DNA of 64,000 nt, from assembly GCF_011039135.1 (NCBI RefSeq), contig NZ_JAAKEJ010000004.1, positions 62,001-126,000 of the forward strand, in the 5' to 3' direction. The notes below the pieces were generated by a model. The model saw only the letters and a list, made by a program, of their open reading frames with translations. It was not told the DNA's origin and did no database searches. The position numbers were made by a program, and so were the translations under genes. This stretch comes from Desulfovibrio sp. ZJ209 (GTDB taxonomy: Bacteria > Desulfobacterota > Desulfovibrionia > Desulfovibrionales > Desulfovibrionaceae). This document shows, in pieces, positions 6,687 through 55,227 of the stretch (position 1 is its first letter; the number at the start of each line of letters is the position of its first letter).

Positions 6687-6706
6687 TCTGTACTGTATCT
6701 GTACTG
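6687..6706. promoter_or_regulatory. Direct repeat TCTGTACTG upstream of ahbB
   Basis: TCTGTACTG occurs at 6687-6695 and again at 6698-6706, one 11-bp helical turn apart, 51-70 bp before the ahbB start and abutting repeat copy 1. Two same-face half sites suggest an operator, but no regulator can be named. Confidence 0.3.
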
Positions 6707-6895
6707 CCGAAATTATCCGTCAAAAACAGCCTTTTTGCTGCTGGCTGCGTCAGAGAAAAATTTTCTCGGTCGAGTACTTAAGTACACTCCCGTCGAAAAT
6801 TTTTATCTTCCTTGCCAGCAGCAAAAAATCTTATTTTTTAGGATTCTTCCGGCACCAGCACCCGTCTTTCGCTTCGCTCCAGACGGACGAAGGAA
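6705..6895 (+). repeat. Five-copy intergenic element, copy 1 (short form)
   Basis: AT-rich element shared with copies at 8.5, 22.7, 40.5 and 54.9 kb. In order: CCGAAATTATCCGTCAAAAACAG, outer arm 6732-6745, TGCGTCAGA, core stem 6756-6765 pairing with 6795-6804 around the palindrome GTACTTAAGTAC, outer arm 6814-6827 (a perfect 14-bp partner of 6732-6745), an A-rich/T-rich stretch ending in TTTTTTAGGATTCTTCCGGCAC, and a terminal CCGTCT...AGACGG hairpin. Relative to the other copies the core stem carries a compensated base-pair change (C to T on one side, G to A on the other). It lies between the minus-strand gene ending at 6930 and ahbB. Confidence 0.85.
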
Positions 6896-6929
6896 GCGCC
6901 GCTGACGGCAAGTATCCGCTCAACTGTCT

Positions 6930-8468: not shown

Positions 8469-8539
8469 GAGGTCTCCGGGCATGGGCTAGATGTCGTCAG
8501 TCGGGAGCGCGGAGCGGCTGAGCCGCTCCCGCTTGCGCA

Positions 8540-8857
8540 ATGCCGAAATTATCCGTTAAAAACAGCCTTGCTCCAGCCGTTGCGACGAAGGAAGCTACGG
8601 ATGGAGACAGCAGTTGGCTAGCGCGTAAGCCAGTCAACGAAATCGCTGTCGCTATCCGTAAGCAGGCAGAGCCTGCTAACGGCTACCGCTTAGGTTCCGG
8701 CTGCGTCAGAAAAAAATTTCCTCGGTCGAGTACTTAAGTACACTCCCTTCGGAAATTATTTTTCTTCCTTGCCGGAACCTAAAAATCTTATTTTTTAGGA
8801 TCCTTCCGGCACGAGCCCCCGTCTGTCGCTTCGCTCCAGACGGAATTAAGGAAGCGT
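8540..8857 (+). repeat. Five-copy intergenic element, copy 2 (long form)
   Basis: Same element as copy 1 with about 120 extra bases after the AAAACAGCC block. The extra part folds on itself: AGCCGTT 8575-8581 with AACGGCT 8678-8684, ACGGAT 8597-8602 with ATCCGT 8654-8659, and a GCAGGC-AGA-GCCTGC hairpin 8662-8676. The outer arms (8690-8701 and 8771-8782) form a perfect 12-bp stem with a sequence unlike the short copies. An ATG at 8540 opens a 65-codon frame that ends inside the core palindrome. It fills most of the 479-bp gap between genes at 8468 and 8948; in the remaining 90 bp next to the permease stop I see nothing. Confidence 0.85.
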
Positions 8858-8947
8858 CGCCGACTGCTAAAAGGAGCGGGCGGCTCGGGTTATTCTGGCG
8901 CAGGCGCACCATAGCGCGGGCCGCGCAAAAGTCAAAGGCCCGGGGCG

Positions 8948-22652: not shown

Positions 22653-22848
22653 CCTTCCTTATACTCCGTCTGGAGCGAAGCGGAAGACGGATGCGGGGGG
22701 CCGGAAGAATCCTAAAAAATAAGATTTTTCGGTGCTGGCAAGGAAGATAAAAATTTCCGAAGGGAGTGTACTCAAGTACTCGACCGAGGAAATTTTTCTC
22801 TGACGCAGCCAGCGCCGAAAAGGCTGTTTTTGACGGATAATTTCGGCG
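22653..22848 (-). repeat. Five-copy intergenic element, copy 3 (short form, inverted)
   Basis: The only copy in reverse orientation. Outer arms lie at 22808-22821 and 22726-22739 (13 of 14 bp paired, one C-A mismatch). The core stem AAAAATTTCC/GGAAATTTTT surrounds GTACTTGAGTAC, and the end hairpin CCGTCT...AGACGG lies near 22665-22690. Together with the apr promoter it accounts for the 552-bp gap between aprB and argD; in 22510-22652 I see only an AT-rich stretch. Confidence 0.85.
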
Positions 22849-33561: not shown

Positions 33562-33600
33562 GCCGGTCCCGCGGGTTGCGCCTGCGGGGCCGGCTTCTTT
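33562..33600 (+). terminator. Intrinsic terminator of the hdr-flx operon
   Basis: An 11-bp stem with one G-T wobble (GCCGGTCCCGC at 33562-33572, GCGGGGCCGGC at 33584-33594) followed by TTCTTT, 24 bp after the flxA stop. Confidence 0.75.
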
Positions 33601-33610
33601 CATTTCGAGT

Positions 33611-40452: not shown

Positions 40453-40535
40453 GGACGCTCCGTGCAATGGACTGAAGGCGTGGTTGTAGGTTTGAGTTGT
40501 CGTCCTCGTGCAGGCGCGTTGTTGCTGCCCGTTTA

Positions 40536-40725
40536 ATGTCGAAATTATCCGTCAAAAACAGCCTTTTCGGTGCTGGCCGCGTCAGAGAAAAATTTCCTCG
40601 GTCGAGTACTTGAGTACACTCCCTTCGGAAATTTTTATCTTCCTTGCCAGCCCCGAAAAATCTTATTTTTTAGGATTCTTCCGACACCAGCACCCGTCTT
40701 CCGCTTCGCTCCAGACGGAAGGAGG
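40536..40725 (+). repeat. Five-copy intergenic element, copy 4 (short form)
   Basis: Outer arms 40564-40577 and 40646-40659 (13 of 14 bp paired, one T-C mismatch). The core stem AAAAATTTCC 40588-40597 pairs with GGAAATTTTT 40627-40636 around GTACTTGAGTAC. The terminal CCGTCT...AGACGG hairpin ends near 40718. An ATG at 40536 opens a 25-codon frame [11 protein letters not shown]... ending in the core. It fills most of the 330-bp gap between the 157-aa gene and the helicase; I see nothing else there. Confidence 0.85.
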
Positions 40726-44116: not shown

Positions 44117-44195
44117 CCATGCCCCTGCGGGGCGCATGGGGCGCGCCCCCCGCGCCATATTTGTCAAACGCCGGATACAATGCGCCGAGCCTGCC

Positions 44196-44840
44196 ATGCC
44201 GCGTGCGCCCAAAAAAACCGCAAGCCCGCCTGACCCCGCCCCGCGCGGCCGCCCCAGGGAGTTCGACCGGGACGCGGCCCTCAACGCCGCCATGGAGACC
44301 TTCTGGCGCAAGGGCTACATGCAGACGACCCTTGCCGACCTCTGCCAGGCCATGGGCATCAGCGCGCCGAGTTTCTATTGCGCCTTCGGGACGAGGGAGG
44401 ACATCTTTCTCGAGACCGTCGCGCACTATAAACAACAGTACTGGGACAAGGCCCTCGACCGCCTGATGCAGGCAGGGGACGTGCGCACGGCCCTCAAAAA
44501 TTTTGTTGAGGACGCCGTGCAGATCTATATGCGCCCGGGCCTCCCCAAGGGCTGCTTCGTGGAGATCTCCACCGTGGGCCTCGCGCCGGGCGAGACGCGC
44601 ATCATCGAAGCCCTCGCCGTCCTCGACCGGGAAACGGAAGCCCTTTTCCGCAAGCGTCTCCTTTTGGCCATCGAGGCCGGTGAGCTTCCGCCAGAAAGCG
44701 ATGTCCCGGCCATCGTCGGCGCCCTCATCGCCTTCATGAAAGGCGTCGCCCTGCTCGCCCGCGGCGAGCTGTGCCAGGCCGAGCTTGCGGAGATCGCCCG
44801 GCGCGGCCTCGCCCTGCTCCCCAACGCCGGCCAGGACTGA
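44196..44840 (+). CDS. TetR-family transcriptional regulator
   Basis: 214 aa. An N-terminal basic Pro-rich arm is followed by a TetR helix-turn-helix (residues about 25-70): RDAALNAAMETFWRKGYMQTTLADLCQAMGISAPSFYCAFGTREDIFLET. The C-terminal ligand domain has PGLPKGCFVEISTVGLAPGETRIIEALAVLDRE, as in regulators of the AcrR/YxaF-like group. ATG 44196 is preferred over 44136 because the helix-turn-helix follows at the usual distance. It is transcribed toward a flavoprotein/cupin/ferredoxin cluster it probably controls; an 87-bp gap with a promoter-like sequence lies between. Confidence 0.88.
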   Translation: MPRAPKKTASPPDPAPRGRPREFDRDAALNAAMETFWRKGYMQTTLADLCQAMGISAPSFYCAFGTREDIFLETVAHYKQQYWDKALDRLMQAGDVRTALKNFVEDAVQIYMRPGLPKGCFVEISTVGLAPGETRIIEALAVLDRETEALFRKRLLLAIEAGELPPESDVPAIVGALIAFMKGVALLARGELCQAELAEIARRGLALLPNAGQD

Positions 44841-44868
44841 AGGTCCGCCTCGGGGCGCGCCACGCGCC

Positions 44869-44895
44869 TTGACGTTCGCGGCCTGTTTTTATTAT
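44869..44895 (+). promoter_or_regulatory. Candidate promoter of the flavoprotein/cupin cluster
   Basis: TTGACG (44869-44874) and TATTAT (44890-44895) with 15-bp spacing, about 33 bp before ATG 44928. The stretch is AT-rich compared with its surroundings. The tight spacer is suboptimal, as is common for activated or repressed promoters. Confidence 0.4.
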
Positions 44896-44927
44896 CAGGT
44901 TTACAAAATTCAACACGAGGTCATCCC

Positions 44928-45590
44928 ATGAAACTGCTGGCCATCAACGGAAGCCCCCGTAAAAAGTGGAACACGGCGACCATTCTTGAAAGCGTGCTCG
45001 CCGGGGCCAAAGAGGCGATGCCCGGGCTGGAGGGCGAGCTCATCCATCTCTATGAGCATGACTACAAGGGCCGCGTGAGCTGCTTTGAATGCAAGCGCAT
45101 CGGCGGCAAGAGCTATGGCAAGTGCGCCGTCAAAGACGGCATTTCGGAAGTGCTGGAAAAGTCCCTGCACGCCGACTGCCTGGTGTTCGGCACGCCCATC
45201 TATTTTTCCGACGTGACGGGCATGATGCGCTGCTACTGGGAGCGCCTGTTCTTCCCCGTGCTCGTGTATGACAAGAACTATTCCTCCCTTGCGCCGCAAA
45301 AGGTGCGCACGGGCTTTGTCTATACCATGAACGCGCCCGAGGGCATGCTGGAAGACATCCACTATCCCGAGCGCCTGAAAGTCATGGAAGACATTGCGGC
45401 GCGGATGCTCGGCCACGCGCCGCTGATGGAATATGTCTGCGATACCTGGCAGTTCAAGGAGTACGCCAAGTACAAGTCGGACGCCTTTTCCCCCGAGGCC
45501 AAGGCGAAAGTGCGCGAAGCGCAGTTCCCCATCGACCGCGAGAAGGCCAGGGCGATGGGCAGGGCGCTCGCCCTCGGTCAGGCGCACTGA
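44928..45590 (+). CDS. NADPH-dependent FMN reductase/iron-sulfur-flavoprotein-like protein
   Basis: 220 aa with a flavodoxin-like fold. The FMN phosphate loop is LLAINGSPRKKWNTATILESVLAGA. A cysteine pair (SCFECKRIGGKSYGKCAVKDG) resembles the compact Cys region of iron-sulfur flavoproteins, though one Cys of the full motif seems absent. CLVFGTPIYFSDVTGMMRCYWERLFF is the second flavin-contact segment. It is a likely reductase of quinones, metals or small electrophiles. Its TGA overlaps the ATG of the following broken gene. Confidence 0.85.
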   Translation: MKLLAINGSPRKKWNTATILESVLAGAKEAMPGLEGELIHLYEHDYKGRVSCFECKRIGGKSYGKCAVKDGISEVLEKSLHADCLVFGTPIYFSDVTGMMRCYWERLFFPVLVYDKNYSSLAPQKVRTGFVYTMNAPEGMLEDIHYPERLKVMEDIAARMLGHAPLMEYVCDTWQFKEYAKYKSDAFSPEAKAKVREAQFPIDREKARAMGRALALGQAH

Positions 45591-45670
45591 TGCTTGCGGC
45601 AAACGCGGGAGATGAAATGGCGGAAGAACTGGTCTTTTGCTTCAGCGGCACGGGCAATTCCTGTATGTGA
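45590..45670 (+). pseudogene. Remnant of an EFR1/flavodoxin-type gene (26 codons)
   Basis: From ATG 45590 (overlapping the preceding stop) the frame reads about 14 residues, then EELVFCFSGTGNSCM and a stop at 45668-45670. F-SGTGNS is the diagnostic FMN-phosphate loop at the start of EFR1-type ferredoxin-flavodoxin proteins, normally followed by about 240 more residues. Those residues are missing: 61 bp later the cupin gene begins. This looks like a deletion that left only the 5' end. An intact relative follows at 46108. Confidence 0.6.
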
Positions 45671-45731
45671 GTATCAGGGTGACGAAAGCGGCCAATTGCC
45701 AGATATGCCCGGAAACGCATTCGGAGGCGCG

Positions 45732-46049
45732 ATGAAAAGTCCCTTTCCCGACTTTGTGGAGCAACTGCCGCTCCGGGACTACGGCCTTCCGGGCCTGACC
45801 GTGCATGTGGACACTTCGCCCCTCGGCGAGACCTATTTTGTCAGCGCGCAGAAAGAAATCGTCTTTGCCGAGCATGCGCACGGGGCGCAATATACCGTGG
45901 TCGTCAGCGGTTCCTGTGCCTATACCGCGGACGGCAAGACCGTCACGTACAAGAAGGGCGACATCTATTTCATCCCGGCCGGGCAGAAGCACCAGATCAC
46001 CCTGCATGCCGGCTACGCCGAAATGGACTATGTGTTCAACGGGGAATGA
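45732..46049 (+). CDS. Small cupin-domain protein
   Basis: 105 aa, one cupin beta-barrel. Motif 1 region: IVFAEHAHGAQYTVVVSGSCAYTADG; motif 2 region: GDIYFIPAGQKHQITLHAGY. His in AEHAHG and GQKH could bind a metal. Such small cupins act as sensors or isomerase-like enzymes; the specific role is unknown. CGGAGG precedes ATG 45732. It sits between the broken flavodoxin-like gene and the EFR1-type gene in the TetR-linked cluster. Confidence 0.85.
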   Translation: MKSPFPDFVEQLPLRDYGLPGLTVHVDTSPLGETYFVSAQKEIVFAEHAHGAQYTVVVSGSCAYTADGKTVTYKKGDIYFIPAGQKHQITLHAGYAEMDYVFNGE

Positions 46050-46107
46050 ACGCGCCCGGGCGGAGTCTCGGCCCCGGGCCGCAAGCGAACAGCCATAAGG
46101 AGGAACC

Positions 46108-46875
46108 ATGGCTATCAGGAAAGTGGCGACGGTGGTTTTCAGCCCCTGCGGCAGCACGGAAAAAGTCACCGAATTGCTCACGGCCAGGCTGCCCGTGGAA
46201 GTGGAGCGGCATAACCTCACTCTCCCGGACGAGAGGGACGCGAAACTGGCCTTCGATGCGGAGACCCTGGTATTTTTCAGCTTCCCGGTCTATGCGGGCC
46301 TGCCGAAAATCGCGGACAAGGTGTTCGCCTGCGTGGAGGGCAAGGACACGCCCTGCGTGTATGTGGCCGTGCGCGGCGACACCGAGCCGGGCGGCTTTTA
46401 CTGGTCCATGGACGACCTGGCCAGGGCCCGCGGCTTCAGGCCCGTGGCCGCGGTGGCGGCCGTGGCCGAGCACACGCTCATGCCCACGGTGAGCCACGCC
46501 CGGCCCGACGCCGACGACGCGAAACTGCTGAACGAATTTGGGCAGAAGGCCCTTGCGCAGGCCAATGAGGGAAAATCGCTCTCCAAGATCCCGGGCGAGC
46601 GCGGCCCCATGAAGGATCTTGTGTTCTTCCCCATTACCGACGCGGACGCCTGCATCAGCTGCGGCCAGTGCGCGGAAAATTGCCCGGCGGGGGCCATCCC
46701 GGAAGATGACCTCGTCACGCAGGACGACAAGCTCTGTATCTGCTGCTCGGCCTGCGCGCATGTCTGCCCCGTGGACGCGCGCACCATGGGCGACGCCAAG
46801 GCGCGGGAAATGCTGCACCAGGCGGCGACAGTGACCTTTGCCGGCCTGCACCTGGAAACGAAGCTCTTTCTGTGA
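46108..46875 (+). CDS. EFR1-type flavodoxin-ferredoxin fusion protein
   Basis: 255 aa. Residues 1-150 are flavodoxin-like: the phosphate loop is VVFSPCGSTEKVTELL and LVFFSFPVYAGLPKIADKVF is the second FMN loop. The C-terminal ~70 residues form a 2[4Fe-4S] ferredoxin with CISCGQCAENCPAG and CICCSACAHVCPVD. These proteins are electron carriers or reductases in anaerobes. AAGGAGG lies 5 bp before ATG 46108. It is the last gene of the cluster, followed by a hairpin. Confidence 0.9.
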   Translation: MAIRKVATVVFSPCGSTEKVTELLTARLPVEVERHNLTLPDERDAKLAFDAETLVFFSFPVYAGLPKIADKVFACVEGKDTPCVYVAVRGDTEPGGFYWSMDDLARARGFRPVAAVAAVAEHTLMPTVSHARPDADDAKLLNEFGQKALAQANEGKSLSKIPGERGPMKDLVFFPITDADACISCGQCAENCPAGAIPEDDLVTQDDKLCICCSACAHVCPVDARTMGDAKAREMLHQAATVTFAGLHLETKLFL

Positions 46876-46901
46876 CACGCCGGCGTGAACGGCGCAACGA
46901 A

Positions 46902-46936
46902 CGCCCAGCGGTGCTGCGAGGGCGCACCGCTGGGCG
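46902..46936. terminator. Hairpin between convergent genes (terminator-like)
   Basis: Arms CGCCCAGCGGTGC and GCACCGCTGGGCG form a 13-bp GC-rich stem with a 9-base loop, lying between the stops of the EFR1-type and GT8 genes. No good T run follows on either strand, so termination is probable by position only. Confidence 0.5.
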
Positions 46937-46999
46937 GTGAAAAGCGCTGAATGAAAGGGACGGCGTCCTCGCTCTTGCCGGTTGGGGCATGCCGGTCCC

Positions 47000-47872
47000 T
47001 CAGGCGAGGATTGCCCGCACCTCCTCCCGGTTGCGCCAATAGGGGAGCGCGGCCGGGAAGGCTTTTTGCCACGGCTTGTGCCACGAATAATGAAGGAGTT
47101 TTCCGCGAAGCGCCGTCTCGCCCAGGAGAAGGCGCCTGCCGTATTCCATCTGGAAGTTCGCCTTCCCGGACAAGGCGCCCGTGTGCCCGGGAAGCCCGAA
47201 CAGGAAATTGAGGGCGTCCTGGTCCGGGAACTGCAATTCCGGCCTCGCCCTGAACAGGGAAAAAACGGCGGCGGGAACATCGGGAACCAGCCTGTTCACC
47301 TCGGCATTCCTGAAAACCAGGACGCCGGAGTTGAAATAGCCGTCATATTCGCCGAAGACCGACCTGATGTAGGCCCGAAAGCCCGGGCGATGCGCCGGGG
47401 CGCTGTCCCGTACGGCCCAGAGCGGCGGGCCGTCCTTCCTTGCCAGCGCGTCGGCAAAAAGGGGCAGGGCATCCCCCGTGGCGATGATGTCGCTATCCAG
47501 ATAAAGTACAGTTTCATTGGGCAAAAGCTGCGGCAGCAACAGCCGGAACAGGCAGCCCTTGCTGAACCGCTCAAGCGCCGGAATCTGCGGAAACCCGGCG
47601 CTCTCTTTTGCCAGGTCGTGAAATACCGCCTCGCCGCCGGAACGGGAAGCGACTTTTTGAAAAGCGTCCCGCTCCGGCGCACCGAGCGTGCCGTCATGCA
47701 GGATGTGCGCCACGAGGGGGACACTCGCGCCTTTCATCAACGAGTGCATGGACGCGAGGCCGTGGATGAAATAGCCGTCCCTGTTGTGGATGCCGTAGGC
47801 GATGTGCAGGGGGGCGCCGTGCTGCTGGGGAAGCGCGGGCGCCGCCTGGGGGGCAGGGGCGCGAGGGCTCAC
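47000..47872 (-). CDS. Glycosyltransferase family 8 protein
   Basis: 290 aa if started at GTG 47872, the only sensible start; it overlaps the end of tsaB-free sequence by none, lying 7 bp after the tsaB stop. GT8 features: HIAYGIHNRDGYFIHGLASMHSL at the N-terminus, the DxD metal motif in ETVLYLDSDIIATGDALPLF, GYFNSGVLVFRN, FPDQDALNFLFG and a C-terminal LLHYSWHKPWQ. It resembles LPS glucosyl/galactosyltransferases such as WaaO/LgtC. The first 25 residues are Ala/Pro-rich. No other sugar-chain genes lie nearby. Confidence 0.85.
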   Translation of the reverse strand: MSPRAPAPQAAPALPQQHGAPLHIAYGIHNRDGYFIHGLASMHSLMKGASVPLVAHILHDGTLGAPERDAFQKVASRSGGEAVFHDLAKESAGFPQIPALERFSKGCLFRLLLPQLLPNETVLYLDSDIIATGDALPLFADALARKDGPPLWAVRDSAPAHRPGFRAYIRSVFGEYDGYFNSGVLVFRNAEVNRLVPDVPAAVFSLFRARPELQFPDQDALNFLFGLPGHTGALSGKANFQMEYGRRLLLGETALRGKLLHYSWHKPWQKAFPAALPYWRNREEVRAILA

Positions 47873-47879
47873 CGCGGGC

Positions 47880-48707
47880 TCATTCTTCCCGGCTTTCCGG
47901 CTTGCGGCTGAGCAGGTCTTCCAGCTCGGCGCAGGCCGCCTTGCCGTCCATGCCCTGCCGGGCCGCGAGCTCGCCGAGGTTTTCGGCGGCGTCGCAGGGC
48001 CGCACATAGAGGGGCTCGATATCCTTGGGAAAATAGTCGCCGTGGCGGGCGAGCAGGGCGAGGGCCGGGGCGCCCGGGTCCACGAGTTCGGGCATGACGA
48101 CGGCGCCCGGCGCGCCGGCCGGGCCCAAGCCCGTGGCCTCGGGCTCGAACCAGCGCGGGTTGCGACTAAGCCCGCTGCCGCAGGCGTGGCAGGGCGCCCC
48201 GGCCATGCGGGCAAGGGCTTCCTCCGGCGTGATGAGTTCCACGGGCCCGAGCGGCTGCGCCGGGATCTGCGGGCCGTAGGAGCAAAAAGGCCGGTAGTGG
48301 ACGAGGTCGCGCCGGGCATGGGTCACCACCATGACGGGCGCGGGATAGAGCAGGCCCCGTTGCATGACCGCGCTGGTGGCCAGCGCCTGGAGATAGTCAA
48401 GGCTCGCAAGCTGGGCGTGCCCCGCGCGGCGCAGGGCCGCTGCCGTGGCGAGCACGAGGCGGATGCCCGTGAACGAGCCAGGGCCGGCCACGCAGCCGAT
48501 GCGCCGGAAACCGGCTGGAGCGATGGCGAGGGCCGCGCAAATGTCACGCAGGGCCGGGGCCAGAAGCTCCGTGGCGCGGTTCGGCTCGTGCCACTCCTCA
48601 AAGCAGCGGCGGCGGCCGTTTTCCGTCACCAGTATCTGGAGCGCGCCCTCGGCGGCGTTGAGCACGAGCTCGAGCCCGGTGGAGTAGCCCGGTGCGCGCG
48701 CGCTCAT
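47880..48707 (-). CDS. tsaB: tRNA threonylcarbamoyladenosine biosynthesis protein TsaB
   Basis: 275 aa, ASKHA-fold partner of TsaD in t6A37 formation on tRNAs. The N-terminus LELVLNAAEGALQILVTENG is the phosphate-1-like strand. IGCVAGPGSFTGIRLVLATAAALRR is the TsaB signature. VMVVTHARRDLVHYRPF matches the next conserved block. The protein is longer than the typical 230 aa because of a C-terminal extension. ATG 48707 overlaps the rseP stop (ATGA). Confidence 0.9.
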   Translation of the reverse strand: MSARAPGYSTGLELVLNAAEGALQILVTENGRRRCFEEWHEPNRATELLAPALRDICAALAIAPAGFRRIGCVAGPGSFTGIRLVLATAAALRRAGHAQLASLDYLQALATSAVMQRGLLYPAPVMVVTHARRDLVHYRPFCSYGPQIPAQPLGPVELITPEEALARMAGAPCHACGSGLSRNPRWFEPEATGLGPAGAPGAVVMPELVDPGAPALALLARHGDYFPKDIEPLYVRPCDAAENLGELAARQGMDGKAACAELEDLLSRKPESREE

Positions 48708-54852: not shown

Positions 54853-54910
54853 GGGTTTCTCCTTTATTTTGTGCATTTGCGAGTTTGTGCAGTGCTTGTG
54901 CGCCCCAGTA

Positions 54911-55227
54911 ATGCCGAAATTATCCGTCAAAAACAGCCTTGCTTCAGCCGTTGCGACGCAGGAAGCTACGGATGAAGACAGCAACAAGTCGCCGCAAATG
55001 TCAACCAACGATGCCATTGTCGCTATCCGTAAGCAGGCAGAGCCTGCTAACGGCTACCGCTTTGCTGCTTGCTGCGTCAGAAAAAAATTTCCTCGGTCGA
55101 GTACTTAAGTACACTCCCTTCGGAAATTATTTTTCTTCCTTGCAAGCACCAAAAAATCTTATTTTTTAGGATTCTTCCGGCACGACCACCCGGCTTCCGC
55201 TGCGCTCCAGCCGGACATAAGGAAGGT
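54911..55227 (+). repeat. Five-copy intergenic element, copy 5 (long form)
   Basis: The second long copy. Its nested fold matches copy 2: AGCCGTT 54946-54952 with AACGGCT 55049-55055, ACGGAT 54968-54973 with ATCCGT 55025-55030, GCAGGC-AGA-GCCTGC 55033-55047. Outer arms 55061-55072 and 55142-55153 pair at 11 of 12 positions with a third sequence type. The bases between the inner arms diverge from copy 2 while the pairing arms are conserved. ATG 54911 opens a 66-codon frame. With it the 424-bp gap between the nitroreductase and cobS is accounted for; the 49 bp next to cobS holds nothing clear. Confidence 0.85.

What the first reader, a model, noticed from the sequence alone, without database searches (positions are those of the whole stretch)
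8540..8702. Long form of the element carries a second nested fold
Copies 2 and 5 contain about 120 extra bases with three nested or adjacent stems: AGCCGTT/AACGGCT, ACGGAT/ATCCGT and GCAGGC-AGA-GCCTGC. Between the two copies these arms are identical while the intervening ~45 bases (8603-8650 versus 54974-55021) differ strongly. Conserved stems with a variable loop suggest a functional multi-branch structure or a cargo slot.
Basis: seen in the sequence. Interest (0 to 1): 0.6.

Follow-up and report, generated by a model that had tools for sequence, protein, structure and literature searches.

The report
Jumping hairpin nested inside another element
The extra 120 bases in two of the repeats are a separate, very small mobile DNA made of two facing hairpins around a variable spacer; it is found in many Desulfovibrio-group genomes and some of their phages, and it has landed repeatedly inside another small mobile element, mostly after the letters CCTT.

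Summary
It is a unit of its own ("B") nested in a host MITE (ends GGCTTTGTTATAC, 8-bp duplications). Of 64 host copies fetched from this genome, 37 hold 50 B units at four positions; 3 further B units stand alone. At an orthologous locus a relative has the host element lacking exactly these 120 nt, with no duplication. B also lies in frame in some prophage genes.

The arms are inverted copies around a variable 33-nt spacer: the REPIN/BIME plan. Insertions prefer C-(C)-T-T on the left (-4 C in 20 of 24 strictly filtered sites; CCTT before 40 of 50 nested copies), with no duplication, like single-strand IS200/IS605-type transposition. No such transposase (PF01797) was found in this genome, and there is no constant tag, so strict REPIN/RAYT membership is not met. 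A cargo slot has no support. Verdict: a new, transposase-orphan variant of a known kind. Pairing of the hairpin loop with the target is a guess without statistical support (p 0.19; 0.34 filtered).

The parts
8570..8689 (+). B unit of copy 2: 120-nt REPIN-like element (two inverted hairpin arms around a variable spacer)
   Evidence: exactly these 120 nt are missing from the orthologous element of relative G027
8570..8611 (+). left arm: GC-nnn-A-GCCGTT-(GCGACGAAGGAAGC)-TACGGAT-n'n'n'-GACAGC, local hairpin
   Evidence: nnn/n'n'n' pairable in 118 of 122 copies, 109 Watson-Crick
8612..8644 (+). variable 33-nt spacer
   Evidence: 17 of 33 differences between copies 2 and 5; mean pairwise identity 65% in 71 copies
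8645..8689 (+). right arm, inverted copy of the left arm; own apical hairpin GCAGGC-AGA-GCCTGC
   Evidence: 82-84/116-118 pairable in 77 of 122, a further 40 with one mismatch type GCT/ACC; apex varies in sequence, stems longer than in shuffles
8539..8569 (+). host element module A; ends in the CCTT after which B sits
   Evidence: module decomposition
8690..8773 (+). host element module C (core hairpin), ends ...TCTTCCTTGCC, the second CCTT used by B in other copies
8774..8860 (+). host element modules D (to 8813) and E hairpin
54941..55060 (+). B unit of copy 5
54910..55225 (+). host element copy 5 with B at the same CCTT
6705..6902 (+). host element copy 1, without B
22654..22847 (-). host element copy 3, without B
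40535..40720 (+). host element copy 4, without B

Best explanation
The 120-nt insert is a non-autonomous mobile element of REPIN/BIME plan: two REP-like hairpins in inverted orientation around a variable spacer, nested in an unrelated short inverted-repeat element (MITE). It inserts just 3' of a CCTT-like tetranucleotide with no target duplication, most likely as a folded single strand cut and joined by an IS200/IS605-type (HUH, Y1) transposase acting in trans. The MITE carries CCTT on its top strand at two module junctions, and these took B again and again. Recombination between copies then shuffled the modules (A-C-D-E, A-B-C-D-E, A-C-B-D-E, A-B-D-E, B in B). The arms are conserved because the hairpins are what is recognised; the spacer only joins them and drifts. 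Shown: separate unit, exact 120-nt presence/absence, no duplication, left-side target preference, arm covariation, distribution in the genus. Inferred: the single-strand mechanism, the enzyme, arm recognition, and recombination as the cause of shuffling.
For: Exact steps at orthologous host elements: window/G027, L086/L057 and L173/L011 120 nt, L126/L036 239 nt for two B units. In-gene empty site: the Mu-like I gene of the genome's other prophage is uninterrupted, 95-96% identical, and shorter by 120 nt. Target: 31 merged sites, -4 C 23/31, -3 C 16/31, -2 T 19/31, -1 T 17/31; after dropping 7 whose flanks resemble host or B modules or are doubtful, 24 sites: -4 C 20 (p 4e-8), -3 C 11 (p 0.055), -2 T 13 (p 7e-5), -1 T 12 (p 4e-4) (one-sided, positions chosen after looking). 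Right side at most 0.24 bits, left -4 1.21 bits. 40 of 50 nested copies are preceded by CCTT. Structure: left arm 118/122 and right arm 77/122 pairable, against 2/122 and 1/122 for the long-range pairing. Host MITE: 8-bp duplications, 8/8 in 4 of 10 best-preserved copies, 0 of 90 random pairings at 7 or more.
Against: No PF01797 match in this genome. Relatives are mixed: B-carrying G029, G017, G057 and the incomplete G075, G076 have none, but B-rich G025, G026 and G027 have 4, 5 and 1. No B-like end near the 10 Y1 loci examined, one of them from G025. No constant tetranucleotide tag at the hairpin foot. Two of the four nested positions (loop of C; inside B) are not after CCTT. At L165/L048 and L070/L024 the host stem beside B differs too, as gene conversion from another copy would give. 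The plus-strand minimum-energy fold is the long nested one; only the minus-strand DNA fold shows arm hairpins. In the local fold the right apex pairs poorly in a fixed register, and 'further pair types' is not above shuffles (86 of 500).
Confidence: 0.7

Rival explanations
1. B is a functional module of the long element (RNA switch or cargo slot); long and short forms are two variants of one element.
For: In this genome 50 of the 53 B units fetched lie inside the host element, at four positions; strong fold.
Against: B stands at 24-31 other independent sites, some in prophage genes; the listed matches of G025 cover B only. At an orthologous locus the same host element exists without it.
Confidence: 0.06
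2. B was inserted a few times by an unknown route and then spread among host elements only by recombination or gene conversion (BOX-like module shuffling), so it is not itself mobile now.
For: Modules are combined freely; positions are the same in many copies; at L165/L048 and L070/L024 the neighbouring host stem differs together with B; no candidate transposase in the genome.
Against: 24 strictly filtered sites outside host and B modules share a left-side target preference; insertion in a phage gene with exact borders; at L086/L057 and window/G027 the neighbouring host stem is unchanged.
Confidence: 0.2
3. B is a Rickettsia-palindromic-element-like unit under selection to be read in frame inside genes.
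For: 120 nt = 40 codons; B is read through in frame in ORFs with PhageMin_Tail, Mu-like I (two), AAA_5 and GemA matches; it lies inside the matched stretch only in the two Mu-like I proteins and beside it in the others.
Against: Of 7 sites with 100 or more open codons on both sides after joining the flanks, B is stop-free and a multiple of 3 in 3 (4 if L058 is read on its true strand); of 18 sites with 40 or more, 7. Nested copies are open in frame 0 in only 10 of 77, stand-alone ones in 21 of 39.
Confidence: 0.08

Closest known systems
REPIN / BIME (REP doublets; PMC3116915: outline and abstract; PMC8266576: abstract and introduction)
   Same: two inverted palindromic units around a variable linker, high copy, a mismatch in the arm stem, some tandem forms
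   Different: no RAYT/TnpA-REP gene found in this genome; no GTAG tag; preference for sites after CCTT; nearly uniform 120-nt length; nested in a MITE
IS200/IS605 elements and their non-autonomous derivatives (mechanism: introduction of PMC8266576; absence of duplication recalled)
   Same: hairpins at both ends, insertion 3' of a short target, no duplication
   Different: no related transposase located; guide sequence 5' of each palindrome not identified; target is a preference, not a fixed word
Rickettsia palindromic elements (RPE; passages of PMC3733652)
   Same: palindromic repeats found in frame inside some genes
   Different: no enrichment of open frames shown here; the identified genes are mainly phage genes; also nested in a MITE
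Pneumococcal BOX elements (passages of PMC3049150)
   Same: composite repeat with an optional, repeatable middle module
   Different: here the middle module is also found alone, and at several positions of the host

Membership tests
REPIN/BIME | two REP units in inverted orientation around a variable spacer | tested here: met
REPIN/BIME | cognate RAYT (TnpA-REP, PF01797) in the genome | tested here: not met
   0 matches in own genome, controls ring in 5 of 14; relatives mixed: absent in G029, G017, G057, present in G025, G026, G027
REPIN/BIME | conserved GTAG (or CGTC) tetranucleotide at the foot | tested here: not met
   three-base stretches at the feet (3-5 and 116-118) vary among copies
IS200/IS605-type insertion | no target duplication | tested here: met
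IS200/IS605-type insertion | fixed short target 5' of the left end | tested here: inconclusive
   clear left-side preference C-(C)-T-T, but not a fixed word: nested sites CGGA and CCGT also occur
IS200/IS605-type insertion | guide sequence pairing with the target | tested here: inconclusive
   loop MAGG could pair with CCTN; M against the -1 base: Fisher p 0.19 and 0.27 on 31 sites, 0.34 on 24
IS200/IS605-type insertion | related autonomous element with the same ends | tested here: inconclusive
   no B-like ends in the 10 Y1 loci examined; the other Y1 places were not examined
MITE (host element) | terminal inverted repeats and target duplication | tested here: met
   outer ends found in 15 of 63 copies; in the 10 best, 8-bp duplications 8/8 in 4, 7/8 in 2, 6/8 in 2
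Rickettsia palindromic element | in-frame occurrence in genes above chance | tested here: inconclusive
Rfam RNA families | match to any family at gathering score | tested here: not met
   0 matches in the window

The most novel reading that the evidence does not exclude
A self-guided hairpin element: the loop of the left arm (GACG-MAGG-AAG) pairs with the target CCTN and so picks the landing site, a guide placed in the apical loop rather than 5' of the hairpin as in IS608. The element is moved by an enzyme not yet linked to it, perhaps supplied by Mu-like phages.
Probability: 0.1. Interest if true: 0.75.

Novelty: new variant of a known kind. Interest (0 to 1): 0.48.

Why it matters
It is an abundant palindromic element of the genus that keeps the REPIN plan but has no cognate RAYT in this genome, has a readable target preference, and is nested at defined points of a second mobile element. 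Presence/absence at orthologous loci makes its insertion chemistry testable. It also warns that 'long forms' of repeats can be nests of unrelated units, and that inverted repeats alone do not tell which stems form: covariation here contradicts the obvious nested drawing.

Tried and rejected
Long nested fold: not supported by covariation, although its energy is good. RAYT-driven REPIN in the strict sense: no PF01797 in the genome. Plasmid and phage record collections: no match to the 322-nt composite. Rfam: no match. Loop-target pairing: p 0.19 for G and 0.27 for T, 0.34 for G after filtering; post hoc, kept only as the novel case, whose odds I lowered from 0.12 to 0.10. In-frame selection: no excess shown. 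Searching IMG/VR for uninterrupted relatives of interrupted phage proteins: none for L058 or the GemA-like protein, only an identical tape-measure protein; the empty site came from the genome's own second prophage. The first target count mixed orientations and nested copies; it was redone: 141 distinct sites in one orientation, 95 nested dropped, 46 left, 31 after merging. A later check found 7 of the 31 (L074, L079, L108, L207, L247, L250, L320) with flanks resembling host or B modules, or, for L207, an odd 128-nt match; both counts are given. Own-genome copies came from searches that score at most 40 candidates each, so 64 is a lower bound. The 122 copies are those of 120 nt with GC at both ends, from 181 hits; 71 of the 122 went into the covariation tests. 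Shuffle counts there are not probabilities, since the copies are related. Literature: no paper naming this repeat appeared in the listings (open-licence PMC papers only; listings read, not the papers).

Full report
What was checked. The window (G000:C4:62001-126000) holds five copies of a repeat; copies 2 and 5 are longer. The extra DNA is exactly 120 nt, 8570-8689 and 54941-55060, and its named stems are present. Between the two copies the arms differ at 3 of 42 and 2 of 45 positions and the middle at 17 of 33.

Copies in the genome. Three searches of the genome and stretches around the hits gave 67 clusters, 64 of the host-element type; each search scored at most 40 candidates, so these are lower bounds. 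Split into modules the host element reads A-C-D-E. The insert, B, is in 37 of the 64, 50 units in all: 27 at the A|C junction, 14 at the C|D junction, 5 in the loop of C and 4 inside another B; 3 further B units stand alone. Orders such as A-C-B-D-E, A-B-D-E, A-B-C-B-D-E and A-B-C-B-B-D-E occur.

The host. Of 63 host copies with both inner ends, 15 show both outer ends and 10 show them well, GGCTTTGTTATAC...GTATAACAnAnCC; the 8 bases outside match 8/8 in 4 of the 10, 7/8 in 2, 6/8 in 2 and fewer in 2, against none of 90 random pairings at 7 or more. So the host is a MITE with 8-bp duplications, short form about 271 bp. An IS1595-family transposase gene of this genome lies just behind a left end GGCTTTGTTATAG...AGTTG; no right end was found, so this is a lead. 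That IS1595 elements make 8-bp duplications is recalled, not tested.

B is a separate unit. At the orthologue of the window locus, relative G027 has the same host element lacking exactly 8570-8689 (CAGCCTT|TTAGG), with no duplicated bases; G026 and G029 lack the whole element and some neighbouring bases. A 120-nt step separates L086 from L057 and L173 from L011; L126 holds two B units (239 nt together) where L036 has none, with no host base lost. At L165/L048 (120 nt) and L070/L024 (119 nt) the host stem beside B differs as well, which fits gene conversion from another copy. B outside this host occurs widely: a strict left-arm pattern is in 24 of 79 genus genomes, 40 times in G025, 45 times here, with no match to the reversed control. 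Twelve stretches of viral contigs carry the motif.

B in genes. B is read through in frame in an ORF with a phage tail match (PhageMin_Tail), in two Mu-like I proteins, and in ORFs with AAA_5 and GemA matches; only in the two Mu-like I proteins does it lie inside the matched stretch. For one Mu-like I gene the genome's second prophage has the uninterrupted gene, 95-96% identical, and the distance between fixed anchors differs by 120 nt. Is being in frame favoured? After joining flanks at 31 sites, 7 have 100 or more open codons on both sides, and B is open and a multiple of 3 in 3 of them (4 if L058 is read on its true strand); at 40 or more codons, 7 of 18. In-frame insertion happens but is not shown to be selected.

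Target. Taking one orientation, dropping 95 nested of 141 distinct sites and merging homologous ones left 31: -4 C in 23, -3 C in 16, -2 T in 19, -1 T in 17. On re-checking, 7 of the 31 had flanks resembling host or B modules or were doubtful; the remaining 24 give -4 C 20 (p 4e-8), -3 C 11 (p 0.055), -2 T 13 (p 7e-5) and -1 T 12 (p 4e-4), with no more than 0.24 bits on the right side (one-sided tests on positions chosen after looking). In the host element 40 of 50 B units follow CCTT, 5 CGGA, 4 CCGT and 1 CCCT. One-sided target choice is described for IS200/IS605 single-strand transposition (introduction of PMC8266576); that it leaves no duplication is recalled. The loop of the left arm reads MAGG and could pair with CCTN; G at -1 goes with M = C in 6 of 18 sites and with M = A in 1 of 13, p = 0.19, or 5 of 14 and 1 of 10, p = 0.34, after filtering. 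This is no more than a guess.

Which stems form. Over 122 distinct copies the bases at 3-5 pair with 34-36 in 118 (TTC/GAA, TCC/GGA, TTT/AAA, GTC/GAC, GCC/GGC and wobbles) and 82-84 with 116-118 in 77, with 40 more in one class that has a single mismatch (GCT/ACC); the long-range pairings needed for a nested rod work in 2 and 1 of 122. On 71 of these the local fold has 12 pairs changed on both sides against 7.2 in shuffles and a score of 0.077 against 0.040, none of 500 shuffles as high and slid versions at most 0.059; its count of further pair types is not above shuffles (86 of 500), and the right apex pairs poorly in a fixed register. The nested fold has 5 pairs against 5.8; its score of 0.032 is above the shuffles (0.029, 0 of 500 as high) but below two slid versions clearly (0.067, 0.050). 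RNAalifold chooses the two arm hairpins. Against this, the single-sequence minimum on the plus strand is the nested fold for RNA and DNA, while the minus-strand DNA minimum is three hairpins. The right apex varies in sequence (62% identity) but keeps longer stems than shuffles, mean 4.06 against 2.64 over 33 distinct apices; spacer identity is 65%, the rest of the arms 92-95%.

What it is. Two inverted REP-like hairpins around a variable linker is the BIME/REPIN plan (PMC8266576; PMC3116915, abstract). Membership in the strict sense fails on two tested features: no PF01797 gene in this genome and no constant tetranucleotide tag. Relatives are mixed: B-carrying G029, G017, G057 and the incomplete G075 and G076 have no PF01797, while B-rich G025, G026 and G027 have 4, 5 and 1; ten Y1 loci of the genus showed no B-like ends, the others were not examined. 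I therefore call it a REPIN-like, transposase-orphan variant nested in a MITE; it works like a single-strand element, with the enzyme unknown. Conserved arms and a drifting spacer would follow from arm recognition (inference). I found no support for a cargo slot.

Noticed in passing
L360 963-2064 (G000:C3 about 326800-327900): IS1595-family transposase ORF preceded by a left end GGCTTTGTTATAG...AGTTG like that of the host MITE: possible autonomous partner; right end not found.
   Followed up: partly
L195 against L048; also L009, L011, L025: A third unit of about 74-75 nt sits between modules D and E of some copies and is absent from an orthologue; by eye it contains a hairpin resembling the right arm of B.
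   Followed up: partly
L207 3-166; L212 7174-7433 (viral contigs): The left-arm unit is repeated with a 48-nt period; read by eye it is an open frame (LAVATQEATDGDSRDA repeats) just before another ATG-starting frame.
   Followed up: no
window 8690-8790 and equivalents in other copies: A stem of the host MITE flanking module C covaries by eye (TTAGGTTCC/GGAACCTAA, TTTGCTGCT/AGCAGCAAA, CGGCGCT/AGCGCCG), so the host too seems under structural constraint; broken where C is missing.
   Followed up: no
L079 and L250 (G007): B units whose flanks look like host modules D and C, at positions not seen in this genome.
   Followed up: no
window 44117-47891: 3775 nt present here is replaced by 46 nt in relative L142.
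   Followed up: no
window 33595-33608: Relative L152 carries a B-containing host element (431 nt) where the window has 14 nt: an empty site in this genome.
   Followed up: partly
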